The notes under the pieces were generated by a model. It had not been told where the DNA came from. It saw only the letters and a program-made list of their open reading frames with translations, and did no database searches. The position numbers were made by a program, and so were the translations under genes. Positions 5,255 through 21,579 of a stretch of 21,579 nt of DNA are shown here, piece by piece; position 1 is the stretch's first letter; each line of letters opens with the position of its first letter. Origin of the DNA: Anaerolineales bacterium UBA7227 (GTDB lineage Bacteria > Chloroflexota > Anaerolineae > Anaerolineales > Villigracilaceae); the NCBI GenBank assembly GCA_002473085.1, contig DKTP01000068.1, positions 1 to 21,579 on the forward strand, in the 5' to 3' direction.

Positions 5255-7342
5255 ATGACACAGCCCCAGGCCAGACCGGTCCCCTTATACGCAAAATGGG
5301 TCCCTGTCCTGGGGTTGTCTGTTTTATATCTCGCGGCGCTCCCCAGCCTGTATCGGACGCTCGGGACGACGAGCGCGGCGCTGGGGATTTTTCCAGCGGC
5401 GCTGGCGGGATGGTATTTCGGCGTCTGGGGCGGGGGCGCCGCGGGACTGGGCCTGAGCGCCGCTGGCAGCCTGATCCTGTATCGGGTCACCGGGAATCTG
5501 CTCCTGGGCGCGCTTTGGCCCGGTATAGCGTTGATCCTTTGGTCGGGGCTGATGACCGGCTACCTGCGCCTCGTCCAGGAAGACCGCGCCCGCACCGAGA
5601 GAGAACTCCAGCGGCGTCTGCGCGAGGCGCGCGCCCTGGCAGACATCGGGCGCGCCTTGAGCGAGAGGGAACGCGTGAGTCTCGACCACGTTTTGCAGTT
5701 GATCGTGGACTCGGCGCGGGAATTGATCGCGGGGACCGAGCAGGCCGTCATCCACCTGCTGGACGAGGAGAATCAGACATTGATCGCGCGCGCGGTCTCC
5801 GGGTTCGAAGCCTCCGAAATCAGAACGGTCAACATGCATCTCGGCGAGGGCGTGGCCGGGCAGGTAATCGCCTCGGGCGAACCGATCAACATCGCCAACG
5901 TGGACGCCGACCCGCGCTTCCTGCGTCAAAACACCCGGCCGCGTTTCCAATCCCTGGCGGTGGCGCCCGTCCCAAGCGGGGAAAAAAGGCTCGGCGCCAT
6001 CAGCGTGCAAAGCCGCCAGGCCGACGCGTTCTCGGCGGAAGAAATCCAATTGCTTTCGGCGCTGGGCGCGCAGGCCTCCATCGCCATCGAAAACGCCCGT
6101 CTCTGGGAAGAGACCCAGCAGGGATTGAAGGAAACCAACGCGCTGTATCGCATCGCGCGGGAACTGTCCGCTTCGTTGAACCCCGATGAGTTGATGGAGG
6201 AAGTGGTCGCCCTCCTGCACGAGAATTTTGACTATTATTATGTCGGCATTTTCATCATAGACCCCGTCACAGACGAGCTCATCGTGCATCACGACCGCAC
6301 AGACCAGGGAGAAATGCTTGCAAAAGCGCGGCTTCCCGCCGGGACCGGCATCGTGGGACACGCGGCGCTCACCGGCGAACCTTTCCTGACCAACGATGTG
6401 GATAAAGTCCTCTTTTACCATCCACACCCGCTCTTGCCGCACACGCAATCCGAACTGGCCATGCCCATCAAAGTCAACGATCGGGCGCTGGGCGTACTGG
6501 ACATCGAGCAATCTCCGCCGCGCCGGCTAACCGGGCGCGACCTGCAACTCGTCGGCGCCATCGCCGAACAACTGGCGGTCGCGTTGCAAAAAGCCTCGCT
6601 CTACTCGGATCTCCAGGCCTCCCTCCAGCAGGAAAAAGCCATCCGCTCGCAACTGCTCCAAAGCGAGCGCCTCGCGCTGGTGGGACGGCTGCTGGCCTCC
6701 GTCTCACACGAATTGAACAACCCGCTCCAGGCCATCCAGAACGCGCTGTTTCTCCTCAAGGAGGAACAGGGCATATCCGAGCAGGGAAAACAGGACCTGG
6801 ACACCATCCTCTCGGAGGCCGAACGCATGGCCTCCCTGATAGAACGCCTGCACAGTTCCTACCGCCCCCTGCACGCGGCAGACTTCCGCCCGGTCCAGAT
6901 CAACGCGCTGGTGGAAAACGTCCACACCCTGGTCGCCGCCCACTTGCGGCGTCTCGAGATCGCCTTCGAGTTCCACCCCGACCCGTCGCTGCCCCCGGCC
7001 CGCGGCCTGCCAGACCAACTTAAACAAGTGACGCTCAACCTCGTCATGAACGCGGTCGAAGCGATGCCGGGCGGCGGGAGACTCACCGTCGCCACCCGGC
7101 GCGGCGGCGACGGCGAAGTCGCGCTGACCGTCGCCGACACCGGCCCCGGCATCCGGCCGGAGATCCTGCCGCGCATCTTCGACGCCTTCGTCACCGACAA
7201 GGATGGCGGCACCGGCCTCGGCCTCACCATCACCTACGACATCGTCCAGCGGCACAACGGACGCATCGCCGCCGAGAACCGGCCGGAAGGCGGCGCGGCC
7301 TTCACCCTCTGGCTCCCCATCCACAACGAGGAGGAAGCATGA
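5255..7342 (+). CDS. Membrane GAF-GAF sensor histidine kinase
   Basis: This 695-residue protein is the only complete histidine kinase in the window. It starts with about four hydrophobic segments (roughly 14-34, 38-58, 60-77 and 82-103), then a linker helix, GAF1 (about 139-283), GAF2 (about 306-446), a dimerisation/phosphoacceptor helix with SHELNNPL (His485), and an ATPase domain with an N box (LNLVMNAVEAM), DTGPGI (G1, Asp628) and GGTGLGL (G2, 651-657). SHELNNPLQ resembles kinases of the NtrB/HisKA type. GAF2 carries LLPHTQSELAMPI, a motif shared with the GAF1 domains of sensors A, B and C, so these GAFs are one subfamily. AAGGA lies 7 nt before the start. The stop overlaps the next gene (ATGA), which makes the response regulator at 7339 its likely partner. 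The ligand is unknown. Confidence 0.92.
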   Translation: MTQPQARPVPLYAKWVPVLGLSVLYLAALPSLYRTLGTTSAALGIFPAALAGWYFGVWGGGAAGLGLSAAGSLILYRVTGNLLLGALWPGIALILWSGLMTGYLRLVQEDRARTERELQRRLREARALADIGRALSERERVSLDHVLQLIVDSARELIAGTEQAVIHLLDEENQTLIARAVSGFEASEIRTVNMHLGEGVAGQVIASGEPINIANVDADPRFLRQNTRPRFQSLAVAPVPSGEKRLGAISVQSRQADAFSAEEIQLLSALGAQASIAIENARLWEETQQGLKETNALYRIARELSASLNPDELMEEVVALLHENFDYYYVGIFIIDPVTDELIVHHDRTDQGEMLAKARLPAGTGIVGHAALTGEPFLTNDVDKVLFYHPHPLLPHTQSELAMPIKVNDRALGVLDIEQSPPRRLTGRDLQLVGAIAEQLAVALQKASLYSDLQASLQQEKAIRSQLLQSERLALVGRLLASVSHELNNPLQAIQNALFLLKEEQGISEQGKQDLDTILSEAERMASLIERLHSSYRPLHAADFRPVQINALVENVHTLVAAHLRRLEIAFEFHPDPSLPPARGLPDQLKQVTLNLVMNAVEAMPGGGRLTVATRRGGDGEVALTVADTGPGIRPEILPRIFDAFVTDKDGGTGLGLTITYDIVQRHNGRIAAENRPEGGAAFTLWLPIHNEEEA

Positions 7343-8182: not shown

Positions 8183-8217
8183 CTGACCACCGGGGGACTT
8201 TGAGGGAAAATGGGCGC

Positions 8218-9540
8218 ATGAAACCTGCAAGCCCTGAATCCGGCGTCCATCCAATGCGCGTCCTCATCGTGGACGACCATCCCAACACCGCCACTATGCT
8301 GGCGAGAGCCGTCGCTCAATTAGGCAAACAGGTGGAGGCGCGTTCTGCCACCAGCGGGCGCGAGGCGCTTAAAGTGGCGGACGATTTCGCCGCCGACCTG
8401 CTCATCACCGACATGATCATGCCTGAGATGAACGGCCTGGAGTTGGCGGAGAAACTGCAAAACCATCCGGGCGGGCGGCCGGCGCACGTGATTCTGATCA
8501 CCGCCTACGACGTGCCGGGGTTGAAGGAAACCGCCCGCCGCGCAAAAGTGGACGAGATTCTCCTCAAGCCGGTGCGTCCCGAACGCATCTGTCAGATCGT
8601 GGAAAACCTGCTGGGCGAATGGAATCGTTCCCGGCCGGCCGCGGCGCAGCAAGCCGCCGGCCGGCCGCACAGGATCCTTGTGGCCGACGACCGTCCCGAC
8701 AATGTGACGCTGCTCTCGCGCTATCTCGAAAACGAGGGCTATGAATATATCGCCGCGGCCGACGGGGTGGAAGCCCTGGAGCAGGCCCGCCGGAGTCATC
8801 CCGACCTGGTGTTGCTCGACGTGAACATGCCCAAGAAGGACGGTTTCGCCGTCCTCGAAGAAATGCGCGCCGACGCGGACTTGCGGCACATCCCGGTCAT
8901 CATCCTGACCGCGGCCCGCATCGATCCCTCGGACGTCCAGGCGGGATTCCACCTCGGCGCGGACGACTACGTCACCAAGCCGTTCGACCGCCGCGAACTG
9001 ATGGCGCGCATCCGCACCAAACTGCGCGTAAAGGAATCCAGCGACCACCTCCTGCGCCAGAACCGCGAATTGAGCATGTTGCTCGAAGCCACTGGCATTT
9101 TGACCGCGCCCGGCCCCATCGAAACGCATCTCGACAACGTCCTCAGCCTGGTCGTCCAGAGACTGGGCGCCGGGGCGGGTTACTTCCTGGATTTTCAAAA
9201 CAATTCGCAGCGCGTCTTCCCCGCCTCCGCGGAACGCCTGGACCTCGCGCAGTTCAAGGATTTTCTGGAAAAGGACAACCGCTCGAACGGCGAGTGTATT
9301 GACAACGCGCAGGAAGACGAAGCCTGGCAAACCCGCGTGGGGCGCGACGTCCGTTCGACGCTTTACGTCCCCCTGCGCGACCGTCACAACAGATCCTTCG
9401 GGGCGATCCTGCTTTTCCACCCCGCCATCGCCCATTTCAAACCGGAACATTCCCCCATCCTGCAAGCCATCGCCAACCAGGTTTCCGTAGCCATCGAAAA
9501 CGAACAGTGGCGCTCCGCTCAACGCGCCGAACGCGCCTGA
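8218..9540 (+). CDS. Double-receiver protein with C-terminal GAF domain
   Basis: The 440-residue protein has two receiver domains and no DNA-binding, kinase or enzymatic output. Receiver 1 (about 13-130) has Asp19-Asp20, phosphoacceptor Asp65 (LLITDMIMPE) and Lys117. Receiver 2 (about 152-272) has Asp157-Asp158, Asp201 (LLDVNMPKKDG) and Lys254. After a helical linker, a divergent GAF domain covers about 284-430. Both receivers keep all key residues, so both should accept phosphate. It may act as a phosphate sink or as an adaptor between kinase and sensors (inference). I prefer the ATG at 8218 (GAGGGA 10 nt upstream). A TTG at 8200 in the same frame has only a poorly spaced G run, and an ATG at 8254 (MRVLIVDDHPN) has no ribosome binding site. 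Confidence 0.85.
   Translation: MKPASPESGVHPMRVLIVDDHPNTATMLARAVAQLGKQVEARSATSGREALKVADDFAADLLITDMIMPEMNGLELAEKLQNHPGGRPAHVILITAYDVPGLKETARRAKVDEILLKPVRPERICQIVENLLGEWNRSRPAAAQQAAGRPHRILVADDRPDNVTLLSRYLENEGYEYIAAADGVEALEQARRSHPDLVLLDVNMPKKDGFAVLEEMRADADLRHIPVIILTAARIDPSDVQAGFHLGADDYVTKPFDRRELMARIRTKLRVKESSDHLLRQNRELSMLLEATGILTAPGPIETHLDNVLSLVVQRLGAGAGYFLDFQNNSQRVFPASAERLDLAQFKDFLEKDNRSNGECIDNAQEDEAWQTRVGRDVRSTLYVPLRDRHNRSFGAILLFHPAIAHFKPEHSPILQAIANQVSVAIENEQWRSAQRAERA
8633..8666. repeat. GC-rich inverted repeat inside the linker between receivers
   Basis: GGCCGGCC plus GCGGC (8633-8645) pairs with GCCGC, one bulge, then GGCCGGCC (8653-8666), around a 7-nt loop. It encodes the Ala/Arg/Pro-rich linker between the two receivers. 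No T run follows, so it is not a terminator. Confidence 0.5.
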
Positions 9541-9577: not shown

Positions 9578-12500
9578 ATGAAAAAGCAATTCATTCCTTC
9601 CATACCGGAAACGCCCGAAGCGCGCAACACCTTGCGTCTTGCGCTGGGAGGCTCCATCGCCACCGCCATCGCCGCCTCGTTCTACTTCTTCCTGGGCTGG
9701 CGCTCCGGAGACTGGCAGCTGTATGGCTGGGGCGCGGGCATGGTAGCGCTCTCGGCGATAGCCCTCATTGCCTACTTCCAGGCGCGGCGCGGACGGACGA
9801 CAACCGCCGTATGGATGCTCATTTGGGGATTAACGCTTACCTTCCTTGTGCTTGTCATGCTGATCGAGGGAACGGGACTGATGCTCGGCGTGGGATTGGG
9901 AATCCTGATCGCGATCGCCGTCGGGCAAACATTGGACGCAAAATCGGCGCAGCGCGCCATGATCGTCGGCGCGGCGGGCGTCATCGCGTGCATCCTGCTC
10001 GACTTATACCTGCCTCCTTACCGCCTGCCCCAACCGGAAGCCGTGCGCGTTTTCGCTCCGGGCATCATCGGCGTTTTTGCCCTGATCTACGGGGTGGTGA
10101 TTGTCCGCAATTTCCGCAATTATTCCCTGCGCACGAAGTTTCTATTGAGCGCGTTCGTGATCGCCGGCGGAGCGCTGGGCGTCTTTAGTTTTTTCATGTA
10201 CCAAAACTCGAACCGAACGGTAGCGGCCCTGACCGGCGAACTACAATCCGCCATTCAGGAGCAGGCGGAACTTCAATTGAACGCCGCCGCCGAAAGGGAG
10301 GCGGGCAAGGCCAGCGAGGCTTTCGCCGAGATCGAAACGACCCTGCAATCATTGGTAGATTATCGGGAATCCCTGTTCGAGCGGACCAATTTATTAGGGA
10401 CAGGCTCGTATTGGGACGCCAATTCCCTTGCCAGGCTGGCGGGCGGACAATACAGCAACTCGGCCAAAGACCCCGGCTCGGTATTCTCGCCGGCCTCCAC
10501 CCGCCTCACTGAAGCCGCGCTCGAAGAACTGAATGTCTCCGTTTATCTGGATTTCATCGCGCCGTCCGTTTTGAAATCCAACCCCAACATCGTAGCGACC
10601 TATTTCATCAGCGCGAATGGCCCGACCCTGTACTATCCGAATATTGATCTGGCCGCCGCCCTCCCTCCAGATTTTAACGCGCAAGACAGCGTATTCTACG
10701 CGCTCGCCGCGCCGAAGAACAACCCGGACCGAAAACCGGTCTGGACGCCGCCCTACCAGGATCCCGCCGGCCTCGGACTGATGGTGACCAACTCCATCCC
10801 GGTGTACGACCAGAGCGGCAAATTCCGCGGCGTGATGGGAGCCGACATCCAATTGGCGCGCGTCGCCGACCAAATCTCAGGCGTTCAGGCGGGACAAAGC
10901 GGCTTTGCCTTCCTAATCGATCCCGAAGGACACATCCTCAGCATGACCGACGCGGGATATGCCTTCTTCGGACTCCAGCCGGAAAATGTGCCGTTCAACG
11001 AATCGCCCAAACAGACCGTGCTGGGACTCGGTCCCGCGGACCTGCAAACGGTCACGGATAAAATGGTCCGCGGGGAAGCAGGGTTGACGAAAGTGAACAT
11101 GGGCGAAACGGAATATTACATCTCCTACTTCCCGCTGGAAAGCGTTGGATACAGCATCGGGCTGATCGCGCCCACATCCGAGTTGGAAACCGCCTATCTC
11201 GAATCCCGCGCGCGTTCTGAAAGGGACATGGAGCAGACCAGCAAGACGGTTATCCTGCTCTTCATCGGGATTTTGCTCACGGCCGCAGTCGTAAGCCAGA
11301 TCCTCGGCCAGATGTTTCTACGTCCGTTATCCCAACTGCGCGACACCGCCGAAGAGATTGCCAAAGGCAACCTGGACGCGCAGGCGCGCATCGAATCGAA
11401 GGATGAGGTCGGCGTTCTGGGCCAGACCGTGAATTCGATGGCCGCGCAACTACGCGATCTGATCGGCTCGCTCGAACAACGCGTGGCCGAACGCACGAAG
11501 GCGCTTTCCACGGTGGCGGAAGTCGGCGCTTCGGCTTCCACGATCCTGGAAACGGACAGGCTGCTGCAAGAGGTGGTGGACCTCACCAAAGAGCGCTTCG
11601 ACTTCTACCACGCCCACATCTACCTGCTCGACGAAACCGGCGAAAATCTCACGCTGGCCGCGGGCGCAGGCGAGCCGGGACGGCGCATGGTCGCCGAGGG
11701 ACACTCGATCCCGCTCAACCGCGAGCGGTCGCTGGTAGCCCGCGCCGCCCGCGAACGAAAAGGCGTCACCGTCAACGACGTGACCGCCGCGCCGGACTTC
11801 CTCCCCAACCCCCTGCTGCCAAATACCCGCTCCGAACTGGCCGCGCCGATGATCGTCGGCGAACAGGCGATCGGCGTCTTCGACGTGCAATCCGACCAGG
11901 TCGGACGCTTCACCGAGGCGGACGTTGACGTGCAAACCACGCTGGCGGCGCAGATCGCCATCGCCATACAAAACGCGCGCCAACACGACCAGACCCAGTC
12001 CGCCCTGGCCCAGACCGAGAAACTGTTCGAGGCCAGCCGCGAGTTGGCGCAATCGGCGGACATGCAGGAATTGACGCGCGCCGCCGTCGAAGCGATGGAC
12101 ATCCCAGCCATAGACCGGGCCATCCTGGGCCTCCTGGATTACGATCCCAACGGCGCCCTGAAAGGCATGACCATCGCCGCCAACTGGTCGAACAACGCCG
12201 AATTGCCAGCCACGCCCATTGGAACGCATTATTCCGAAGAGGCGCTCAAATCCGTCTCCCTGTTCACAAGCAAAGAACCGCTCTTCTTCGACGACATGTT
12301 GAACGATGAGCGGATTGACGAGACCGCCAAAGAAATTTTCCGAAAACTGCGCTACCGCAGCGTGGTCGCGCTGCCGCTGTTCGTCCGGTCGCGCCAGGAT
12401 GCGCTCCTGCTGCTGGAAGGCGAACATCCGCACAACTTCACTTCGGACGAAATCCGCCTGTTCGCCTCGCTGGCGCCGCAGATCGCCACCGTGCTGGAAA

Positions 12501-12718
12501 ACCGCCGCCAGTTCGAACGCGCCCAAAGGCAGGCTGAGCGCGAAAGTATGCTGAACGCGATCAGCCAGAAGATTCAGGGCGCGGCCACCATTGAATCTGC
12601 CATGCAAATTGCAGTGCGGGAATTGGGACACGCGTTGGGCATGAAGCCTACTTCGGCGACATTGACGCCTACAATGGGAACCGCCCGCCAGAAAAATGCC
12701 AGGGAAGCCGCATCGTGA
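9578..12718 (+). CDS. Sensor A: membrane domain, Cache, HAMP, two GAF domains, no transmitter
   Basis: The 1046-residue receptor has about six membrane helices (roughly 24-176) and a seventh (about 187-208). An extracellular Cache-type sensor follows (about 215-550; note SGKFRGVMGADIQL and GQSGFAFLIDPEGHIL). Then come a last membrane helix (about 555-577), HAMP (about 578-632), a signalling helix (SLEQRVAERTKAL), GAF1 (about 655-800, with NPLLPNTRSELAAPM) and GAF2 (about 825-978). The chain ends after a stub, ISQKIQGAATIESAMQ with RELGHALG, that looks like the first helix of a further GAF. No HisKA, ATPase, GGDEF, EAL, methyl-accepting or phosphatase motif is present, so it must signal through a partner (inference). 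AGAGGT lies about 5 nt before the ATG. GAF2 and the stub closely match sensor C, also at DNA level. Confidence 0.88.
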   Translation: MKKQFIPSIPETPEARNTLRLALGGSIATAIAASFYFFLGWRSGDWQLYGWGAGMVALSAIALIAYFQARRGRTTTAVWMLIWGLTLTFLVLVMLIEGTGLMLGVGLGILIAIAVGQTLDAKSAQRAMIVGAAGVIACILLDLYLPPYRLPQPEAVRVFAPGIIGVFALIYGVVIVRNFRNYSLRTKFLLSAFVIAGGALGVFSFFMYQNSNRTVAALTGELQSAIQEQAELQLNAAAEREAGKASEAFAEIETTLQSLVDYRESLFERTNLLGTGSYWDANSLARLAGGQYSNSAKDPGSVFSPASTRLTEAALEELNVSVYLDFIAPSVLKSNPNIVATYFISANGPTLYYPNIDLAAALPPDFNAQDSVFYALAAPKNNPDRKPVWTPPYQDPAGLGLMVTNSIPVYDQSGKFRGVMGADIQLARVADQISGVQAGQSGFAFLIDPEGHILSMTDAGYAFFGLQPENVPFNESPKQTVLGLGPADLQTVTDKMVRGEAGLTKVNMGETEYYISYFPLESVGYSIGLIAPTSELETAYLESRARSERDMEQTSKTVILLFIGILLTAAVVSQILGQMFLRPLSQLRDTAEEIAKGNLDAQARIESKDEVGVLGQTVNSMAAQLRDLIGSLEQRVAERTKALSTVAEVGASASTILETDRLLQEVVDLTKERFDFYHAHIYLLDETGENLTLAAGAGEPGRRMVAEGHSIPLNRERSLVARAARERKGVTVNDVTAAPDFLPNPLLPNTRSELAAPMIVGEQAIGVFDVQSDQVGRFTEADVDVQTTLAAQIAIAIQNARQHDQTQSALAQTEKLFEASRELAQSADMQELTRAAVEAMDIPAIDRAILGLLDYDPNGALKGMTIAANWSNNAELPATPIGTHYSEEALKSVSLFTSKEPLFFDDMLNDERIDETAKEIFRKLRYRSVVALPLFVRSRQDALLLLEGEHPHNFTSDEIRLFASLAPQIATVLENRRQFERAQRQAERESMLNAISQKIQGAATIESAMQIAVRELGHALGMKPTSATLTPTMGTARQKNAREAAS
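11471..11496 (+). repeat. 26-bp exact repeat in the HAMP-to-GAF signalling helix (copy 1)
   Basis: This segment of sensor A is identical over 26 nt to 21554-21579 in sensor D, where the match is cut only by the window end. It encodes LEQRVAER plus flanking bases. Sensors B (about 14902) and C (about 17193) have diverged copies. Confidence 0.9.
12473..12516 (+). repeat. 44-bp exact repeat in the last GAF domain (copy 1)
   Basis: The segment is identical over 44 nt to 18841-18884 in sensor C and lies in a longer, highly similar block that continues into the C-terminal stub. It encodes APQIATVLENRRQF. Identity at synonymous sites suggests recent duplication or gene conversion between the two genes. 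Confidence 0.9.
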
Positions 12719-12775
12719 GCAATCCATTTATCTCCACATCCAAATTCTGGCCGATGCGACAGTAACAGTCATGCC

Positions 12776-14011
12776 ATGAAACGATCTCAAAAACTTTCCC
12801 ACCTGTTGCGCTTAATGTGGAACAATCCGATTTTCGGAGATTCCTATCCGCTTGAAATTAAGGCGGACCAGATGCTTGCGCAGGTAGATCGCATCTACAG
12901 CGGTTTTCAAGAGTCGTTTCGCGCGGCTCTGAAGGAAGGATTGCCCGACGCTTCGCCAAACGATTTGGACGAAATTGTGAATCAAGTCGGCCCAAAGTCC
13001 GTCGCATTTTGCGCGTCGATTTCGGCAGGCGAACTGAAGGATACGGAACGGCTTCAAAACGCGGCAGTAGCAATCGCTGTCCTCTATTGGGCCGATCAAA
13101 GCATGGATCGCGGCGATGACGCCATGGTCGCGGCGGTGCAACGCGTGGCGGCTGAAACGCGCGGGATGGCCGCCGCTTCGGATCATATCCCAGGCGCGGC
13201 AGCGTTTCGCCGAGCGGGATTAAGACACATCGAGCGCATGGTCCGCAAACTATACGAACACCCGGAAGACACGCCCCATATCCTGCGCGCGATTTACCTG
13301 GATATACTGGACAATGAGGCGCGCGTCCGCAATTTGAGCCGCGAATACTTCATCGCTGGACTCTCGCCGTCGTTTTGGGATGAACATGCCGACGAAGTCG
13401 CCCGCAAAACGATCGTCGATTCCGGTTTGATGAGCGCGTTGACGCTGATCTATTCCATTTATCGGAATCACGATAAAAGCCTGCCCTCGTTACAGGAAGT
13501 CTACCAGGATGACATCCTGATGAAACTGGTTCGGGAAAGATTCAACAGCGCGATCCGCGTCTTCGACGACTGGGGCGACCGTCATATTGACAACGCGCAG
13601 TATCCACAATGGGGAGTCTTCAACATTAATGTATTCAACCAACCCGATCGCCGCTTTCTCGAACGATTTACTTTTTATTCTGGAATAACCGATACGGCCT
13701 TACAGGGCAGCCTCATGTCCGCCTTTTCGCATGCGACAGAGGAGGACTGGCTGTACATCGCCCGCACATATGCATTTTTATTACGGGACAGCCTGGCATC
13801 CCTGCCTCAACCTGTCAAAGTAAAGTACGAGGTTTTCTTAACCCTGTGCAAGCGGACCCTGGAGGCTGGATTCGTCAACGCGGTGGGGGATATTTTCCTC
13901 ACCGAAGGACAGGAAGACAAAAACGTCACCCCCGACTCGCTGAACGCCATGCTTGACGCCCTTCAAGACACGAGCAGCGGATACCTGGAGGCGGCAAGGA
14001 GTAACCCATGA
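12776..14011 (+). CDS. Putative class I isoprenoid synthase-like protein
   Basis: I do not recognise a named enzyme in this 411-residue, mostly helical protein. Two aspartate-rich motifs stand out: YWADQSMDRGDD (105-115, a DxxxD with Asp107 and Asp111) and FDDWGDRHID (263-272, with Asp264, Asp265 and Asp268). Their spacing of about 157 residues, with a helix RKTIVDSGLMSAL (210-222) between them, fits the fold of terpene, squalene and polyprenyl synthases, where such motifs bind magnesium and the diphosphate. No signal peptide or membrane helix is visible. No strong ribosome binding site precedes the ATG at 12776; an ATG at 12815 (MWNNPIFGDSY) is an alternative. The gene sits 57 nt after sensor A and overlaps sensor B by 4 nt, so it appears to belong to the sensor operon. 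Its base composition looks slightly lower in GC than its neighbours. Confidence 0.45.
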   Translation: MKRSQKLSHLLRLMWNNPIFGDSYPLEIKADQMLAQVDRIYSGFQESFRAALKEGLPDASPNDLDEIVNQVGPKSVAFCASISAGELKDTERLQNAAVAIAVLYWADQSMDRGDDAMVAAVQRVAAETRGMAAASDHIPGAAAFRRAGLRHIERMVRKLYEHPEDTPHILRAIYLDILDNEARVRNLSREYFIAGLSPSFWDEHADEVARKTIVDSGLMSALTLIYSIYRNHDKSLPSLQEVYQDDILMKLVRERFNSAIRVFDDWGDRHIDNAQYPQWGVFNINVFNQPDRRFLERFTFYSGITDTALQGSLMSAFSHATEEDWLYIARTYAFLLRDSLASLPQPVKVKYEVFLTLCKRTLEAGFVNAVGDIFLTEGQEDKNVTPDSLNAMLDALQDTSSGYLEAARSNP

Positions 14012-15585
14012 GACCCAGATCTTTTTTTGCTTTTGAAGGAACCCCACAGGCGCGCAATGCCTATTACGCCAGTCTGATCTTTTTGCTGGTGAGTCTCCTT
14101 TCGATGCCTGTGTACGCTTTTATCGCTTATCAATCGCAAGTGTGGCAGGGTTGGTTCCTGGTGGCGCTTACCCTCATGCTTGCCCTGGCAAGCGGCGGAG
14201 GGATGCTATTAAGTCAGCGCGGTAAGACCGTCGAGGCAATGGGCGTGATGATTGCGACCATCATAGCCGGCGGCTGGATCGGCTCCCTGTTGATCGCTGG
14301 ATTGGGAACGCTGATGGCGATTCTTATCCCGGTGGTCTCGATCATTTTTGCCACACAGTCGTTTCCAAGCCGCTGGCTGAATCGCGCCCTGTTACTCGTC
14401 GGCCTCGCGGGGGTAATCGCCGCCTTCATCGGGTTGATGGGAGGCGATTTACAAGCCCAGATTCCGGCGTTACAAGGCACAGCGGTTCCAATCCTTGCAG
14501 CCGCCGCAATTGTCGGCTTTGGCGTCATTGTCGTTCGTCAATTTTCCCGATATCCCTTTTCCACAAAGTTGCTGATGCTCTTTTTGGTCATCGTTTTGGC
14601 GGCTGTCTCGGCCGTCGCCGCAACTGCAACCTGGCTGCTGCAGAATTTCACGACGCCCCAGGCGGCGGAAAGGACAATCGTGCTTGTCAGTTTGGCGGTT
14701 ATCCTGGCCGTAGGCTTTCTCTCCTCCATCGCGGCTCGGGCGCTGACAAGTCCCGTCGAAAACCTGACGAACGCTTCCAGCCGGGTCGCATCAGGCGATT
14801 TAGGAGCGCGCGCGTTCGTCGAAACCGATGATGAGATCGGCATTCTGGCAAAAACTTTCAATGAAATGGCGGCTCAACTGCAGGAAGTTTTCTCCACCCT
14901 GGAACAACGCGTGGCCGACCGTACTAAAGCCCTGCAAACCTCCGCCGAAGTGACCCGACGCCTGATGGCGGTGACGAGTCTGCGTCAACTGGCGACGGAG
15001 GTGGTGGAACAAGTCAAAACCGCCTTTAATTACTACCACGCGCACATCTACTTCATGGATGAGGAAAGCGGACATCTGATCATGGCGGGCGGAACCGGCG
15101 AGGCGGGCGCCGCCCTGCTGGCGCGCGGCCACAAGATCCAGATGGGACTCGGCCTGGTGGGGCGCGCCGCGCAGACCAATATCCCGGTCCTCGTCCCGGA
15201 TGTCTCTCAGGCAGAAGGCTGGCTGCCCAACCCCCTGCTCCCAGAAACCAGGTCGGAGGCGGCCGTCCCGATCTCGTTGGGCGACCAAATGCTGGGCGTG
15301 TTGGACGTACAGCAGAATGCGGTCAACGGGCTCGGCGAGGAAGACGTGGAGCTGCTGCAATCCATCGCTGGACAGGTAGCCATCTCCCTTAAAAACATCC
15401 GCTCATTTGAAGAATCGCGCGCCCAGGCAGAACTGGAAACCATGGTCAACCTGATCGGCCAGAAGATCCAGCGCGCCGCCAGCGTGGAAGAGACCCTGCA
15501 AACCGCCATCCGCGAGCTGGGACAGGCGCTCGGAGCCTCGCGCGTCCGGGCAAATATCCAGGCCAGCCAGGAATCATTGACTTAA
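14008..15585 (+). CDS. Sensor B: multi-helix membrane domain, HAMP, one GAF domain, no transmitter
   Basis: The 525-residue protein begins with about eight membrane helices (roughly 20-243). HAMP follows (about 245-297), then a signalling helix (TLEQRVADRTKAL), one GAF domain (about 320-466, with YYHAHIYFMDE and NPLLPETRSEAAV), and the same end stub as sensors A and C (IGQKIQRAASVEETLQ, RELGQALGA). It lacks an extracellular sensor domain: the loop between the last two helices is only about 11 residues. The membrane part is related to that of sensor A, sharing TPQARN near the start and VIVVRQFSRYPFSTKLL before the seventh helix. It looks like a sensor A paralogue without Cache and second GAF. 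AAGGAG lies 7 nt before the ATG, which overlaps the stop of the upstream gene. No catalytic output domain is present. Confidence 0.85.
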   Translation: MRPRSFFAFEGTPQARNAYYASLIFLLVSLLSMPVYAFIAYQSQVWQGWFLVALTLMLALASGGGMLLSQRGKTVEAMGVMIATIIAGGWIGSLLIAGLGTLMAILIPVVSIIFATQSFPSRWLNRALLLVGLAGVIAAFIGLMGGDLQAQIPALQGTAVPILAAAAIVGFGVIVVRQFSRYPFSTKLLMLFLVIVLAAVSAVAATATWLLQNFTTPQAAERTIVLVSLAVILAVGFLSSIAARALTSPVENLTNASSRVASGDLGARAFVETDDEIGILAKTFNEMAAQLQEVFSTLEQRVADRTKALQTSAEVTRRLMAVTSLRQLATEVVEQVKTAFNYYHAHIYFMDEESGHLIMAGGTGEAGAALLARGHKIQMGLGLVGRAAQTNIPVLVPDVSQAEGWLPNPLLPETRSEAAVPISLGDQMLGVLDVQQNAVNGLGEEDVELLQSIAGQVAISLKNIRSFEESRAQAELETMVNLIGQKIQRAASVEETLQTAIRELGQALGASRVRANIQASQESLT

Positions 15586-15633
15586 TCGGCTAGCAAATAT
15601 TTCGCTTCAATCAACCAATAAGGAAATTGCAAC

Positions 15634-16392
15634 ATGTCAAAAACGCTGTTCGCACTGTTTATCATCCTGTCTCTCGCGGCTATGGTATTGTCAGGCTGCG
15701 CCCCCCAACCGGTTATTCTTGAAGTCTATGCGGGCGATTCAATGAAAAAACCCGTGCTGGAGATCAAAGGCCTCTACGAAGAACAACATCCGAACGTCAC
15801 CGTCAATTGTAGTTTTGCGGCCTCCAAAACGCTGGAAGAAACCATGCGCGCCATCCAACAGGGCGACATTTACATCGCCACCCTGCAAGACGTGGAGCGA
15901 ATGAAACAGAATGGCCTGATCCTCGAAAGTCAACCGTTGGCGACCCTAACCCCCGCAATCATTGTGCGGAAGGGCGACAAAACAGTGAAATCCTGGGACG
16001 ACCTGGCTAGGGATGGGGTACGCATTTCCATCCTCACCCCCGAATTGGGAGCGGCGGGCAGCCTGGCGAAAAAGATCATCGGGAAATCGCCCCTGAAAGA
16101 CTCCATCGAAGCCAACATCATTGCTCTGGCCGCCACGCCAAGCGAAATGACGGAGCTGCTGTTAAAAAATGAAGTGGATGCTCTCATCATTTGGGATTCC
16201 GTCGCGAAATCCAACCCGAAACTGGAAGCCGTCCAAATCCCCGCCGACATTACCGAAATTCTGGAGATGTGGATTGCAATTCCATCCTACACCGCGTCGG
16301 AAAAGGACGCGTCGGCCTTTGTGGAATTCGTTGCCGGCGCGGAAGGAAAACAGGCGTTCAAAAACGCCGGTTTCTCCATCCTTGAAAAATAA
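15634..16392 (+). CDS. ModA-like substrate-binding lipoprotein
   Basis: The 252-residue protein has a lipoprotein signal peptide ending in LSGC (lipidated Cys22), so it should be anchored on the outside of the membrane. The mature part resembles the ModA family of oxyanion-binding proteins: YAGDSMKKPVLEI with FAASKTLEE at the first lobe, GDIYIATLQDVERM, TPELGAAGSLAKKI at the hinge, EVDALIIWDSVA, and FVEFVAGAEGKQAFKNAGF at the end. The exact ligand (molybdate, tungstate or other) cannot be read from the sequence. No ABC permease or ATPase gene is adjacent. The gene lies 48 nt after sensor B and 69 nt before sensor C, so a role in sensing, with the protein presented to a receptor, is more likely than simple uptake (inference). 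AGGA lies about 10 nt before the ATG. Confidence 0.75.
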   Translation: MSKTLFALFIILSLAAMVLSGCAPQPVILEVYAGDSMKKPVLEIKGLYEEQHPNVTVNCSFAASKTLEETMRAIQQGDIYIATLQDVERMKQNGLILESQPLATLTPAIIVRKGDKTVKSWDDLARDGVRISILTPELGAAGSLAKKIIGKSPLKDSIEANIIALAATPSEMTELLLKNEVDALIIWDSVAKSNPKLEAVQIPADITEILEMWIAIPSYTASEKDASAFVEFVAGAEGKQAFKNAGFSILEK

Positions 16393-16461
16393 CTCCGGCC
16401 CAGTATCGCAAGGTTGATCCTGCCGCCATGATCGTTTCCGCCAGATGAAAGCGAGGCATGC

Positions 16462-19068
16462 ATGTCTCTTAAATTAAAACTCGGCTTATTAATGTTGACC
16501 CTCATCGCCCTCTTGTCCGGCGCCTTTTGGGTTTTCACCCGCAACGCGCGGCAACTGGAAGATATCGCCGCCCGCCGGCGGTTGGGACAGGTCATGCTGT
16601 TCACAAGCGAAAAGCTGGCGTTGGGCAAATTAATCGCGCAATCGAACCTGCCCGACAAAAACAACGCCATCGCCCGGGTGGTTGACGACGTGTTCCTGAT
16701 GCAAGCTGCAGTCAATACCAACTTGCGAATCGAGAAACGGACCGAGATCGCAACCTCCCTGCGCGATATTCAAACCTCCCTGTCCACAATCAGTCTGTTA
16801 CTTCAGGATCTGCGAGCGCGCGCCGCGACAGGGCAGGCGCTGACCCAGGAGGACGTTCTCCGCCTGGATCAATTGGATGCCATCGTAAGCAAAGTCGGGA
16901 CGACGGTGACAGAATACGATCAATACCTTAACGCAGAGGAGAAACAGATCAAGAAAACAGCCAATCTGTTTACAAACATCATCGTCGCCGCCATGGTGGC
17001 CACGCTCATTGCGCTTTTCCTCATCGTATTCTTCAACATTCTCAGCCCAATCAACGCGCTGACGCGCTCCGCGCAGGAAATCACGCAGGGAAACTACGCC
17101 CACGCGACCAATCTCAAAAGTAAAGATGAATTGGGGAAACTGGGAAACGCCTTCGATACCATGACTTCCCGCCTGCGAGAGTTCATCGGTACGCTCGAAA
17201 CACGCGTGGCCGAACGCACGCGCAACCTGGAACTGGCCGCCGAAGTCGGACGCTCCGTCTCGCAAGTGCGCGACCTCGACGTCATGCTGCGAGAAGCCGT
17301 GGAGATCATCCGCTCTCGCTTCAACCTGTACTATGCGCAGGTCTACCTCGCCAACCCGACGCAGACGACGCTGACGCTTCGCTCCGGGACGGGGACGGTC
17401 GGCGCGGAACTGACCGCGCGCGGCCACAGCCTCCCGATCAACTCCGCGTCCATCAACGGGCGCGCGGCCGTGGAAAAACGCCCCGTGGTCATTTCGGACA
17501 CCGCCGCCAGCCCATCCTTCCATCCCAACGCGCTCCTGCCAGACACACGCTCGGAAATGGCCGTCCCGCTCATCATCAACGACCGGGTAGTGGGCGTGTT
17601 GGACATGCAGAGCGACCGGGCCGGCGCGCTCAACCAGGAAATCCTGCCCGCTTTTGAAGCGCTGGCCGGACAGTTGGCAGTTGCCGTCCAGAACGCGAAC
17701 CTTCTGGAAGAGGCCGAGCAGGCCCGCGCAGAAGTGGAAAAGCAGGCCGCCCGCCTCGTCCACGCCCAATGGCAGGATTACCTGGACGCCATCCACAAAC
17801 CCGAACAGATCGGGTTCGCCTACGAACAGAACCGGATCACGCCTCTCTCCGAGACCGAGGCCGCGCAGCCGCTTCCGAGCGACAGTTCCCTGTCCGCGCC
17901 CATCGCGGTCGGCGGAGAGACGCTCGGTTCGCTGGCGGCCGAGCTGAACGAGCAGTCCAAAAATCCGCAGGCGAGAGAACTCATCAACGCCGTCGCGCGC
18001 CAGGTGGCGCGGCAAGTCGAAAACCTGCGCCTGCTGGAAAACGCCGAGCGTTATCGCGCCGAAGCGGAGCAGGCCTCCCGCCGGCTGACCCGGGAAGGAT
18101 GGCAGGAATATGCCGCAGGCAGAAAAGCGGACGACCTCGGCTTCCTTTACGATCTGAAAGAGGTCCGGCCGCATGAAAGCGCCGCCGACCTTTCCCCCGA
18201 ACCGGCGGCGGTCGCCCTGCCGATCAAAGTCCGCGAGGAGGCCATTGGCAGCCTCGCCGTGCAAGGATTAAATCCCGCGGACGCCGCCTCGCTGGAGCTC
18301 GTCGCCACCGTCGCGGAACGGTTGGGCGCCCACATTGAAAACCTGCGCCAATACGACCGCGCCCAGTCCGCGCTGACACAGACGGAAAAACTGTTCGAAG
18401 CCAGCCGCGACCTATCGCAGGCCGGCGATCTACAGGAACTGACCGCTGCCGTCGTCGCCGCGCTGGACATCCCCGAAATCAACCGGGCAGTACTGGCAAT
18501 CTTCAATTACGACGCCGACAACCAGATCAACAGCCTCGACATCATCGCGAACTGGTGGAACGGGACGGGGACCGAGATCACCCCCGTCGGGACGCATTAC
18601 CCGCGCGAGGTCATCCGCGCCATGTCGCTGTTCGTCAGTCCCACGCCGGTCTTCTTCGACGATACGCACGCCGACGAACGCGTGGACGCGGTCACCATGC
18701 AGCTGGTTCAACGACAGAACCTGCGGGCGGTGGCAATCCTTCCCCTGCACAGCGGCGCCCGGCAGATCGGCGCGGTGATCCTGGAAGCCGAAGAACCGCA
18801 CAAATTCACCTCGGAAGAGACCCGCCTCTTCACCTCGCTCGCGCCGCAGATCGCCACCGTGCTGGAAAACCGCCGCCAGTTCGAGCGCGCCCAAAAGCAG
18901 GCCGAACGCGAAAGCGCGCTGAACCTCATCAGCCAGAAGATCCAAAGCGCGACCAGCGTGGAATCCGTCTTGCAGATCGCGGCCCGCGAACTGGGTCACG
19001 CGCTCGGCGCGCCGCTCACCATCGCCCAATTGGGCGTGAAAGAACGCGGCGACGGCGGCCAGGATTGA
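16462..19068 (+). CDS. Sensor C: helical periplasmic domain, HAMP, GAF, two half-GAF repeats, GAF, no transmitter
   Basis: The 868-residue receptor has a membrane helix (about 6-26), a helical extracytoplasmic domain of about 140 residues (27-168, like a four-helix-bundle ligand domain), a second helix (about 169-191), HAMP (about 192-244), a signalling helix (TLETRVAERTRNL) and GAF1 (about 265-411, with NALLPDTRSEMAVPL). Next come two tandem repeats of about 108 residues (416-525 and 526-634), each with WQ(D/E)Y, G-F-x-Y and a P-I-x-V/GSLA half-GAF pattern, and then a final GAF (about 640-807). It ends with the stub ISQKIQSATSVESVLQ, RELGHALGA and a short tail. No HisKA, ATPase or methyl-accepting motif is present. 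The final GAF and stub match sensor A closely. GCGAGG lies about 6 nt before the ATG. The ModA-like lipoprotein gene directly precedes it. Confidence 0.87.
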   Translation: MSLKLKLGLLMLTLIALLSGAFWVFTRNARQLEDIAARRRLGQVMLFTSEKLALGKLIAQSNLPDKNNAIARVVDDVFLMQAAVNTNLRIEKRTEIATSLRDIQTSLSTISLLLQDLRARAATGQALTQEDVLRLDQLDAIVSKVGTTVTEYDQYLNAEEKQIKKTANLFTNIIVAAMVATLIALFLIVFFNILSPINALTRSAQEITQGNYAHATNLKSKDELGKLGNAFDTMTSRLREFIGTLETRVAERTRNLELAAEVGRSVSQVRDLDVMLREAVEIIRSRFNLYYAQVYLANPTQTTLTLRSGTGTVGAELTARGHSLPINSASINGRAAVEKRPVVISDTAASPSFHPNALLPDTRSEMAVPLIINDRVVGVLDMQSDRAGALNQEILPAFEALAGQLAVAVQNANLLEEAEQARAEVEKQAARLVHAQWQDYLDAIHKPEQIGFAYEQNRITPLSETEAAQPLPSDSSLSAPIAVGGETLGSLAAELNEQSKNPQARELINAVARQVARQVENLRLLENAERYRAEAEQASRRLTREGWQEYAAGRKADDLGFLYDLKEVRPHESAADLSPEPAAVALPIKVREEAIGSLAVQGLNPADAASLELVATVAERLGAHIENLRQYDRAQSALTQTEKLFEASRDLSQAGDLQELTAAVVAALDIPEINRAVLAIFNYDADNQINSLDIIANWWNGTGTEITPVGTHYPREVIRAMSLFVSPTPVFFDDTHADERVDAVTMQLVQRQNLRAVAILPLHSGARQIGAVILEAEEPHKFTSEETRLFTSLAPQIATVLENRRQFERAQKQAERESALNLISQKIQSATSVESVLQIAARELGHALGAPLTIAQLGVKERGDGGQD
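18841..18884 (+). repeat. 44-bp exact repeat in the last GAF domain (copy 2)
   Basis: Identical to 12473-12516 in sensor A. The flanking sequence stays very similar for several tens of bases downstream, through the region encoding RAQ(R/K)QAERES. Confidence 0.9.
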
Positions 19069-19109
19069 ATTCCGCTTTGCAAGGAGCCAGCGCCGCCCCG
19101 TCCAACGCG

Positions 19110-19139
19110 TTGACCGCGCCTGGAGCCAAACCGTGCAAT
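19110..19139 (+). promoter_or_regulatory. Possible promoter of the BMP lipoprotein gene
   Basis: TTGACC (19110-19115) and TGCAAT (19134-19139) are 18 bp apart, inside the longest gap of the sensor cluster (169 bp, 19069-19237). The transcript would start near 19146, about 90 nt before the ATG. The -35 is good and the -10 is moderate. Confidence 0.35.
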
Positions 19140-19237
19140 TTTTCTACCGGACATCCTGCCTGAGCCAGCCAATGTTGGAGAACGTCTCTTACGCCAAGCG
19201 CTCACTTTTACGAGAGGTCCGCTACAAGGAGAAATAT

Positions 19238-20257
19238 ATGTCGCGCAAGTTAATCGTCCTTTTCGCCGCTTTTACCCTCATCCTTGCGGGATGCGGCGGC
19301 GCGCCAACCGCCTCGCCCGCGCCCGCCGTCCCTTCCCCCACTCCCGAGGCCAAACCCTTCCGCGTCGCGTTCATCACGCCAAGCGCGGTGAACGACATGG
19401 CCTTCAGCCAGGGCATTTACGAAGCGCTGATGCAAATCCAGGAAGAAATGGGCGGCGCGGCAAAAATGACCTTCGTCTATTCGCAAGGCATGTATGTGCT
19501 GACCGACGCGACCGCCGCGCTCCGCACCTACGCGACGCAAGGCTACGACCTGGTCATCGCGCACGGCTCGCAGTATGGAGACACCGTCAAAGAGGTGGCG
19601 CCCGAGTTCCCGCAAACAAGTTTCGCCTGGGGCACCGACTCCAAGACCTTTGGCCTCCCCAATGTGTTCGCGTACGAGGCCGCATCTGAACAGGGCGGAT
19701 ATGTCAACGGCGTCCTGGCCGCCAGCCTGACCGCCAGCAAAAAGATCGGGGTGATCGGCCCGGTGGAGGTGGGCGACGCCAAGTTATACGTGGACGGATT
19801 CAAAGCCGGCGTCGCGGCGACCGATCCCGAAATTCAGGTGAACGTGAACTATATCGGTTCATTCTCCGACGTTGTGCTGGCTTCTGAAACCGCGGCCGGA
19901 TACATCTCGGACGGCGCGGACGCGCTGACCGGCACCGCCCAGATGGTAGTTGGGCCGATCGGCAACGCCAGCGAAAACAACGTCCTCTGGTTCGGCACAC
20001 AGTCCAACCAGACCTCCCTGGCCCCCAGGATCGTTGTGGCAAACCAGGTTTACCACTGGGAAGTCGTGCTGAGGGAGATCGTCGCCAAGATCCAGGCCGG
20101 CAGGCTCGGCGGAGATTCCTTCACCATCACGCTCGCCAACGGCGGCCTCGTCATGGAGTACAACCCGGATTACGCCCTGCCCGCCGACATCAAGACATTG
20201 GGCGAGAAGACCGTGCGAGGCATCGTCAACGGCACGATCGCCATTGACCTGCCCTGA
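19238..20257 (+). CDS. BMP/PnrA-family substrate-binding lipoprotein
   Basis: The 339-residue protein has a lipoprotein signal peptide with LAGC (Cys19), a Pro/Ala-rich linker (about 21-38) and a mature domain of the BMP (basic membrane protein/PnrA) family. Family marks are VAFITPSAVNDMAFSQGIYE (43-62), DLVIAHGSQYGDTVKEVAPEF (104-124), EQGGYVNGVLAASLT (151-165), KIGVIGPVEVGD, and a late TLANGGLVM. Known members bind nucleosides or related small molecules, but the ligand here is unknown. No ABC transporter genes are adjacent; sensor D follows after 60 nt. I chose the ATG at 19238 because AAGGAG lies 6 nt upstream and the signal peptide begins there; an in-frame GTG at 19133 would add 35 residues before the signal peptide. 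Confidence 0.85.
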   Translation: MSRKLIVLFAAFTLILAGCGGAPTASPAPAVPSPTPEAKPFRVAFITPSAVNDMAFSQGIYEALMQIQEEMGGAAKMTFVYSQGMYVLTDATAALRTYATQGYDLVIAHGSQYGDTVKEVAPEFPQTSFAWGTDSKTFGLPNVFAYEAASEQGGYVNGVLAASLTASKKIGVIGPVEVGDAKLYVDGFKAGVAATDPEIQVNVNYIGSFSDVVLASETAAGYISDGADALTGTAQMVVGPIGNASENNVLWFGTQSNQTSLAPRIVVANQVYHWEVVLREIVAKIQAGRLGGDSFTITLANGGLVMEYNPDYALPADIKTLGEKTVRGIVNGTIAIDLP

Positions 20258-20317
20258 AAAAACGGCCGCTTATCCTTCGATGAAAGCAAAGTTCCGCATT
20301 TACCTGGAGTTCCTGAG

Positions 20318-21579
20318 ATGACGACTCAACCTGCTCGATCAGATCCCGGCCCTGTGGACAAAGCCAATCCCGGCAAACGCTCGTCCATTCGGACAAAAAT
20401 CACCTTCTGGGCAGGGCTTTGGCTGGCTTTGGTCTCTTTTATTCTGATCGGCTATTCCGTTTTTACGTTTCGGAACGCGGCCATTGACAATGCCACCAAA
20501 GAAGCGTTGGCTTTCTCGGAAGTGCAAGCCAGCCAGGTCATGGACGTTCTGAGCCCGCCTCTCGTGAAGGCGCGCACATTGGCGGAATCCCTGGAGGCGG
20601 TCAAGGACCCCAGCATCCCCATCGCCTTGTCGCGGGACGAGGCCAACGCCATTCTCCGAAAAGTTTTGCTGGAGAATCCCTCCTTTTTGGGCACATACAC
20701 CCTGTGGGAGCCAAACGAATTCGACGGATCGGACAGGCAGTATGCGAGAGCGGTGGCGCATGACGAAACCGGCCGTTTCATTCCCTACTGGGTGAGAGAC
20801 CTCGACGGAATCATCCACACGGAGGCTTTAACCCAATATGAAATACCGGGCGTCGGAGACTGGTACATCATCCCCCGCAGTACCCTGAAAGAGGTCGCCA
20901 TCGCGCCCATCGTCCGCCGCATCCAGGGACAAGACCTGACCATCGCGTCGTTCATCGTCCCCATCGTCTCGGACGGGAAGTTCTACGGCATCGCCGGGGT
21001 GGACGCGCCCATCGGCGTCATGCAGGAACTGGTGGATAGGATCGATCTATACGAAGGCAGCGCCGAAGTCGCGCTATTCACCGAAAGCGGGACGCTGGTC
21101 GCGGTTCGGAATCGCCCCGAGATAGCCAATCAATCGGTTGATCTTATTTACAACGATTACAATCAGATCCGATCCCAATTAGGCGATACATTTTCAAGGC
21201 TGAGCCAGGACGGCAAATACCTCCAAATCTTTTCGCCGATCAAAGTGGACGACGCGGGGACGCGCTGGGTGTTGGGCTTCAGCATCCCCTTCGACAAGAT
21301 CACGGCTCCCGCCACAAGCGCCGCCGTTCGCCAGGTGGTCATCAGCCTCGCCTTCATCGCGCTGGCCCTGATCTTCCTCTGGTTCGTCGCGGGACAGATC
21401 GTCCGCCCCATGCAGGCGTTGACCCAGGCCGCGCAGACCGTGTCGGCGGGAAATTTGAATGTGACCGCGGATGTGCGCAGCAACGACGAGACCGGCGTGC
21501 TGGCAGGCGCGTTCAACTCGATGACGCTCCAACTCAGAACCCTGTTCGCCACCCTCGAACAACGCGTGGCCGAACGCAC
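20318..21579 (+). CDS. Sensor D: Cache and HAMP receptor, 3' end cut by the window
   Basis: Translation from the ATG at 20318 is open to the window end, giving 420 residues plus two bases. It has a membrane helix (about 28-50), a double-Cache-like extracellular domain (about 55-335, with LWEPNEFDG, GDWYIIPRST, GIAGVDAPI and WVLGFSIP), a second helix (about 338-358), HAMP (about 360-412) and the start of a signalling helix, TLEQRVAER. This helix is identical at DNA level to that of sensor A over 26 nt, so a GAF-containing cytoplasmic part probably follows. Whether it has a kinase domain cannot be seen. GGAG lies 8 nt before the ATG. The BMP lipoprotein gene lies 60 nt upstream. Confidence 0.85.
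   Translation, partial: MTTQPARSDPGPVDKANPGKRSSIRTKITFWAGLWLALVSFILIGYSVFTFRNAAIDNATKEALAFSEVQASQVMDVLSPPLVKARTLAESLEAVKDPSIPIALSRDEANAILRKVLLENPSFLGTYTLWEPNEFDGSDRQYARAVAHDETGRFIPYWVRDLDGIIHTEALTQYEIPGVGDWYIIPRSTLKEVAIAPIVRRIQGQDLTIASFIVPIVSDGKFYGIAGVDAPIGVMQELVDRIDLYEGSAEVALFTESGTLVAVRNRPEIANQSVDLIYNDYNQIRSQLGDTFSRLSQDGKYLQIFSPIKVDDAGTRWVLGFSIPFDKITAPATSAAVRQVVISLAFIALALIFLWFVAGQIVRPMQALTQAAQTVSAGNLNVTADVRSNDETGVLAGAFNSMTLQLRTLFATLEQRVAER
21554..21579 (+). repeat. 26-bp exact repeat in the HAMP-to-GAF signalling helix (copy 2)
   Basis: Identical to 11471-11496 in sensor A. The match reaches the last base of the window, so its true length is unknown. Confidence 0.9.

What the first reader, a model, noticed from the sequence alone, without database searches (positions are those of the whole stretch)
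9578..21579. Array of receptors without any transmitter domain behind one two-component core
Three complete sensors (A, B, C) and a partial one (D) have input domains, HAMP, a signalling helix and (A, B, C) GAF domains. A, B and C lack a kinase, methyl-accepting, cyclase or phosphatase output. One full histidine kinase, one DNA-binding regulator and one double-receiver protein lie directly upstream. HAMP and signalling helices normally drive a covalent output domain. I therefore infer that output is supplied in trans, perhaps by mixed assemblies with the kinase at 5255-7342, whose GAF2 shares the LLPxTxSE motif with the receptors. I know of no well-described system with this layout.
Basis: partly seen in the sequence, partly recalled or inferred. 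Interest (0 to 1): 0.75.

Follow-up and report, generated by a model that had tools for sequence, protein, structure and literature searches.

The report
Kinase-less receptor array sharing one tip
A row of bacterial membrane sensors that carry no enzyme of their own end in the same short, unnamed protein tip and, in many relatives, sit beside free-floating kinases, which suggests a signalling array that works like the chemotaxis machinery but is built from different parts.

Summary
A, B and C have HAMP and GAF domains, no catalytic output, and no room for a hidden kinase frame. D is cut by the contig end. The layout is not a one-off. A, B and C end in a conserved ~50-residue C-terminal "cap" without a significant Pfam match. 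Of 120 listed homologs each of B and C, 119 and 120 end in it; one carries a kinase instead. In C homologs the cap is the most conserved segment (0.84 pairwise identity; GAFs 0.55-0.72). Cap receptors occur in 36 of 41 sampled genomes of the family, in tandem arrays (12 of 12 copies in 23 kb of a one-contig genome). In 42 of 55 related loci the last receptor, often the counterpart of C, is followed within 4-156 nt by a kinase without predicted membrane segments, whose GAF stack aligns with the receptor's. In 14 pairs the likeness ends where the receptor has its cap and the kinase its HisKA. A second array type ends in a ParA-like ATPase and a hybrid kinase. A CheW-domain search found none in 40 of 41 genomes. 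Best reading: membrane receptors controlling a separate soluble kinase through shared stalks and caps. Physical coupling is inferred, not shown.

The parts
5255..7342 (+). 5' histidine kinase, GAF-GAF-HisKA-HATPase, with hydrophobic N-terminus
   Evidence: Pfam; 2 hydrophobic segments; same position in G002, L130, L131, L137
7339..8136 (+). OmpR-type response regulator, REC-winged helix
   Evidence: Pfam Response_reg + Trans_reg_C
8200..9540 (+). REC-REC-GAF protein; 12 of 20 complete counterparts in related loci also carry a kinase
   Evidence: Pfam; count
9578..12718 (+). Receptor A: membrane helices, dCache, HAMP, signalling helix, GAF-GAF, cap
   Evidence: Pfam; hydropathy
12506..12673 (+). 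cap of A
   Evidence: profile A2, E 1.4e-27 (this cap is itself a row of A2)
12776..14011 (+). 411-aa protein of unknown family between A and B; its stop overlaps B's start codon
   Evidence: no Pfam/NCBIfam match; 57 homologs, those named with an organism are Chloroflexi/Anaerolineales
14008..15585 (+). Receptor B: several membrane helices, HAMP, signalling helix, GAF, cap
   Evidence: Pfam; AlphaFold2 model, mean pLDDT 89.7
15400..15567 (+). cap of B
   Evidence: profile A2 (this cap is itself a row of A2); helix-turn-helix in the model
15634..16392 (+). SBP_bac_11 (ModA-like) binding protein before C
   Evidence: Pfam; modA model just below cut-off
16462..19068 (+). Receptor C: membrane helices, HAMP, signalling helix, GAF, two reduced GAFs, GAF, cap; counterpart of the last receptor of related arrays
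   Evidence: Pfam; 69% identity over 698 aa to the last receptor of L110
18874..19041 (+). cap of C
   Evidence: profile A2 (this cap is itself a row of A2); most conserved segment of the listed C homologs
19133..20257 (+). Bmp/PnrA-like binding protein before D
   Evidence: Pfam
20318..21577 (+). Receptor D: dCache, HAMP, start of signalling helix; cut by contig end
   Evidence: Pfam; contig end

Best explanation
A, B, C and D belong to a family of Anaerolineae membrane receptors with no transmitter of their own. They sense through different outer or membrane domains, probably in part through the binding proteins encoded beside them, and pass the signal through HAMP, signalling helix and GAF stalk to a conserved helical tip, the cap. 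They act in trans: tips and stalks assemble with a separate soluble multi-GAF histidine kinase encoded at the end of the array (here beyond the contig end), which phosphorylates receiver proteins. C is the hub receptor: its stalk is built like the kinase's, so the two could pair in register, while the others would join through their caps. Shown: architecture, cap, arrays, kinase position in relatives, alignable stalks. Inferred: physical pairing, signal flow, direction of control, phosphotransfer targets, that D has a cap, and that this genome has the kinase.
For: No output domain in A-C. 119 of 120 listed B homologs and 120 of 120 listed C homologs end in the cap. The cap is the most conserved segment of C homologs. 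36 of 41 family genomes have it, in clusters. 42 of 55 loci have a kinase straight after the last receptor, gaps 4-156 nt. These 42 kinases have no predicted membrane segment, while 117 of 124 receptors with a complete start do, and all 42 have an intact H-box. 35 of 42 receptor/kinase pairs align over 150 columns or more. In 14 the likeness ends at cap and HisKA; in full-length alignments 11 of these 14 have the same cap-to-HisKA offset (12 of 14 with cropped sequences). Cross-identity peaks in the helices that link GAFs (0.46-0.55) and is 0.14-0.19 in the cap. No CheW-type domain in 40 of 41 family genomes.
Against: A last receptor is not more similar to its own neighbour kinase than to foreign ones (own pair ranks first in 1 of 42), so no pair-specific co-evolution was seen. 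The likeness of stalks may reflect only common ancestry, and the GAF-linking helices are also among the best conserved parts within the kinases themselves, so their cross-identity does not prove contact. In 13 pairs the likeness stops at HisKA in the kinase but about one GAF short of the cap in the receptor, in 8 it ends elsewhere, and 7 of 42 align over fewer than 150 columns. The cap profile finds nothing in the kinases of the 42 pairs, so the cap's docking site is unknown. No ortholog of the terminal kinase is found in this genome. Only 14 of 41 family genomes gave a match at E <= 1e-80 to that kinase; the other array type uses a hybrid kinase. No complex was modelled or measured.
Confidence: 0.6

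Rival explanations
1. The receptors form homodimers whose cap docks directly on a non-kinase target encoded in the arrays (a PLP enzyme-receiver fusion, a ParA-like ATPase, or single receiver proteins), so no kinase is controlled by them.
For: A ParA-like ATPase ortholog is in 35 of 36 cap genomes and 0 of 5 without cap.
Against: The kinase shares the stalk and is the gene adjacent to the last receptor in 42 of 55 loci. The ParA-like ATPase belongs mainly to the other array type.
Confidence: 0.2
2. The receptors work by mixed assemblies with the kinase at 5255-7342.
For: Same strand and gene order; single GAFs of this kinase match C at 25-33%; the 5' position is kept in several loci.
Against: Only single-GAF similarity was found, no stack. 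It has its own hydrophobic part, and a better-matched kinase exists elsewhere in the locus of relatives.
Confidence: 0.13
3. The receptors are decayed kinases that lost their C-terminus and have no function, or the truncation is a sequencing artefact.
For: Alignable stalks suggest descent from a common multi-GAF ancestor.
Against: The same end in 140 of 142 complete copies from 55 loci and in 239 of 240 listed database homologs, own proteins included; cap more conserved than the GAFs in C homologs; stops followed closely by the next gene.
Confidence: 0.03

Closest known systems
Chemosensory arrays (methyl-accepting receptors with a soluble kinase CheA, CheW, CheY; ParC/ParP or PpfA positioning)
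   Same: Many membrane receptors with varied inputs and one conserved cytoplasmic end; a separate soluble kinase (chemotaxis side: passage of PMC5936718); in relatives, single receiver proteins and a ParA-like ATPase encoded alongside
   Different: No MCP signal domain in A-D, no CheW-type domain in 40 of 41 family genomes; stalk made of GAF domains; kinase is an ordinary HisKA-HATPase with its own GAF stack
Ordinary HAMP-GAF histidine kinases (NarX/NarQ type)
   Same: Input domain, HAMP, signalling helix and GAF in the same order (passages of PMC8199190)
   Different: No HisKA/HATPase in A, B, C; a conserved cap stands where the terminal kinases have HisKA
Multikinase networks with an accessory sensor (RetS/GacS; listing and abstract starts only)
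   Same: One sensor modulating another sensor kinase in trans
   Different: RetS keeps kinase-type domains (recalled); here the receptors have none and come in arrays

Membership tests
Chemosensory (Che) system | Receptors carry the MCP signal domain | tested here: not met
   Pfam scan of A-D lists none at E <= 1
Chemosensory (Che) system | CheA and CheW present | tested here: not met
   PF01584 (CheW domain, also part of CheA by recall) in 1 of 41 family genomes (G025), not in the window's genome; control rings in 7 of 14 known genomes. MAGs may be incomplete
Chemosensory (Che) system | Separate soluble kinase encoded with receptors | tested here: met
   42 of 55 related loci, 42 of 42 without predicted membrane segment; not seen in the window itself
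Chemosensory (Che) system | Receptors and kinase form one complex that controls kinase activity | not testable with these tools
   no complex prediction or experiment was made
Chemosensory (Che) system | CheR/CheB adaptation | not tested
   no search made
Sensor histidine kinase | HisKA/DHp and HATPase domains in the same chain | tested here: not met
   A, B, C: none; 239 of 240 listed homologs: none; D incomplete
Cap-receptor family defined here | C-terminal cap within about 45 residues of the stop | tested here: met
   A, B, C and five receptors on contig C59; D cannot be tested
GAF domain (is the cap a truncated GAF?) | Profile similarity of the cap to the first part of GAF | tested here: not met
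   hhalign probability 0.1% in 4 of 4 comparisons; positive controls 98.4% and 99.9%

The most novel reading that the evidence does not exclude
A second, independent chemosensory-type machine: arrays of diverse membrane receptors with a new conserved tip domain that control soluble multi-GAF histidine kinases in trans, positioned in one array type by a ParA-like ATPase, in a bacterial family whose sampled genomes mostly lack CheW-type domains.
Probability: 0.45. Interest if true: 0.9.

Novelty: new variant of a known kind. Interest (0 to 1): 0.75.

Why it matters
Separating membrane receptors from the kinase lets a cell pool many signals on one kinase; in chemotaxis a soluble kinase reads membrane receptors (passage of PMC5936718). 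A second design, with an unnamed tip domain and GAF stalks, in a large family whose members are labelled only 'GAF domain-containing protein' or the like where a source names them (2584 database entries match B at E <= 0.001, 120 seen), would give a comparison case for how receptor arrays evolve and work. It would also give a role to an unexplained receptor family of Anaerolineae. The hypothesis is testable with a handful of proteins.

Tried and rejected
Hidden kinase or frameshift: rejected. C18 end as the continuation of D: no overlap with the window end. Cap as truncated GAF or relic of DHp: looked plausible by eye, not supported by profile comparison with working controls (the first run had no control). 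Cap histidine as phospho-acceptor: H in only 91 of 120 C homologs. Pair-specific similarity of a receptor to its own kinase: not found. Excess within-array similarity of caps: reached by 2 of 2000 permutations but tiny (0.504 against 0.494), the last GAF showed none (1525 of 2000), so not used; the centred form of that test warned of an empty row and is disregarded. Cap conservation in the 31-row alignment A5 (0.86) is biased because those loci were found with cap patterns; the figure used (0.84) comes from homologs picked by words in the first 500 residues, though ranked by whole-protein score. In the 65 B homologs aligned (of 120 listed) the cap (0.57) is less conserved than the GAF (0.68). 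The sequences compared were cropped at the cap and at HisKA, which could force the end points; the full-length comparisons end at nearly the same places and are the ones to trust. The 55 loci are not all independent: L101/L104 and L096/L137 overlap on one contig each, some others come from one genome, and L109/L111 look near-identical; the 42 pairs contain neither L104 nor L137. Structure search of the B model: the 50 matches shown are chiefly GAF-containing proteins. The C model has mean pLDDT 72 and pTM 0.35; its cap helices score about 69-83. Papers: listings (empty); passages of PMC8199190, PMC5936718, PMC6062612, none read whole; none of what was seen describes this layout; only open-licence papers were searchable.

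Full report
What is in the window. The region holds receptors A, B and C complete and D cut by the end of the contig. None of A, B, C has a catalytic output in Pfam, and the NCBIfam rows shown are HAMP- or GAF-level matches far below cut-off. The next gene starts within 48-64 nt of each stop, so no kinase frame is hidden. Two binding-protein genes (SBP_bac_11 before C, Bmp before D) and a gene of unknown family lie between the receptors.

The receptors share an end. A, B, C and five receptors on another contig of the same genome (C59) finish in a similar stretch of about 50 residues, followed by a short variable tail. I call it the cap; Pfam gives only non-significant matches there. In a search with B, 2584 proteins passed E 0.001 among 7999 scored candidates. 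Of the 120 listed (the window's own B included), 119 have no kinase domain and end 6-35 residues after the cap; the exception, P0004, is a histidine kinase. In a search with C (1160 passed among 7992 scored; 120 listed, own included), all 120 carry the cap at the C-terminus and none has a kinase domain. In these C homologs the cap is the most conserved segment: mean pairwise identity 0.84, against 0.72 GAF1, 0.55-0.57 reduced GAFs, 0.62 last GAF, 0.38 HAMP, 0.20 sensor part. In 65 of the B homologs it is 0.57 against 0.68 for the GAF and 0.20 for the tail. The model of B (mean pLDDT 89.7) shows the cap as a long helix, a turn and a 15-residue helix; the weaker model of C shows the same. Profile comparison does not relate the cap to the GAF start or to HisKA, with controls at 98.4% and 99.9%.

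The arrays are conserved. The cap profile matches 36 of 41 sampled genomes of the family at E 1e-5, 48 of 150 of the class sample and 28 of 241 of the phylum sample at E 1e-6, 14 of the 28 being of the own family. In a one-contig genome of 4.4 Mb all 12 copies found lie between 1,850,623 and 1,873,556. A named-genome scan with two cap-derived peptide patterns gave 55 loci, all with titles of Chloroflexi groups as I know them; it could not find diverged caps. They hold 143 cap proteins; 142 have a complete 3' end, 140 of these stop within 45 residues of the cap, and one (L139) also has a kinase domain. 51 of 55 loci hold a separate kinase gene. Two pairs of these loci overlap, so the counts hold a few repeats.

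Two array types. The window type reads: [RNase Y] - multi-GAF kinase - REC-winged helix - REC-REC-GAF (with kinase in 12 of 20 complete copies) - receptors - last receptor, often with several GAFs - soluble multi-GAF kinase - PALP-REC fusion - REC (Pfam of examples). Not each locus shows each gene, partly because loci are cut. G002, of the same genus, has this order including malic enzyme, RecX and RNase Y. The other type, seen in 6 of 6 regions that I chose from genomes with few contigs, besides the broken one of the own genome, reads: two single REC proteins - receptors - ParA-like ATPase - hybrid kinase with two REC. The ParA-like ortholog (at least 60% identity, one partial) is in 35 of 36 genomes with caps and 0 of 5 without; the exception is the window's genome. 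The genomes are related, so these are not 41 independent events. In 18 of 20 genomes whose coordinates I compared it lies 41-136 nt from a cap; in two it is 1.8 and 6.1 kb from the nearest listed one.

The separate kinase. In 42 of the 55 loci the last receptor is followed directly by a kinase, gaps 4-156 nt. All 42 kinases lack predicted membrane segments, as do 7 of 124 receptors with a complete start, and all 42 have an intact H-box. 35 of 42 pairs align over 150 or more columns. In 14 the likeness ends where the receptor has its cap and the kinase its HisKA; the offset between cap start and HisKA start is the same in 11 of these 14 in the full-length alignments, and in 12 of 14 with the cropped sequences. 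In 13 it ends at HisKA in the kinase but about one GAF short of the cap, as if the kinase lacked the last GAF; 8 end elsewhere. C itself aligns with about twenty such kinases of other genomes over about 410-490 columns at 27-33% identity, and its best 23 matches are all last receptors of their loci. Identity between receptors and kinases peaks in the helices between GAFs (0.46, 0.55, 0.53), is 0.13-0.37 over most of the GAF cores, and is 0.14-0.19 in the cap. Such helices are usual dimer contacts (recalled), so receptor and kinase stalks could pair; but they are also well conserved within the kinases, which weakens the inference. Own pairs are not more alike than foreign pairs. The window's genome shows no such kinase; its contig ends before the expected place.

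Not chemotaxis proper. CheW-type domains occur in 1 of 41 family genomes. The literature searches showed no description of this layout. ParC/ParP coupling of chemosensory arrays is known (PMC5706961, start of the abstract) and is the nearest parallel for the ParA-like gene.

Verdict. The idea of output in trans is supported, with a different likely partner and a conserved tip not described in what I could search. The step from gene order and shared stalks to a working receptor-kinase complex is inference.

Noticed in passing
L036:5165-6829 (own genome, contig C18); L076:5424-7070 (G002): A PLP-dependent enzyme of threonine-synthase type fused to a receiver domain (Pfam PALP + Response_reg) lies by the array kinases; by session profiles it is the next gene after the terminal kinase in 36 of 41 loci. 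A possible phospho-controlled metabolic enzyme.
   Followed up: partly
window 12776-14011; L125, L135: A 411-aa protein family without Pfam or NCBIfam match, 57 homologs, found beside receptors in the window and two other loci.
   Followed up: partly
window 19133-20257 with D; L091; L097: A Bmp-type binding protein lies directly before a dCache receptor in the three loci where it was seen; no permease or transport ATPase is among the ten window proteins scanned, which suggests sensing rather than transport, though the contig ends after D.
   Followed up: no
L034:7136-19865 (contig C59 of the own genome): Second array of five cap receptors after two single REC proteins; it breaks off into a dCache-like fragment and then genes that look by eye like MreB and ATP synthase; the usual ParA-like gene was not found in the genome: possible misassembly or rearrangement.
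   Followed up: partly
window 8200-9540: The REC-REC-GAF protein looks like a REC-REC-GAF-kinase without its kinase; both forms occur in relatives (8 without, 12 with).
   Followed up: partly
window 21542-21579, 11459-11496, 14890-14924: The DNA of the signalling helix is repeated (89% identical over 35-38 bases) among D, A and B; the contig ends in this repeat, a possible cause of the assembly break.
   Followed up: no
L037: A fetched stretch of contig C17 contains runs of masked bases.
   Followed up: no
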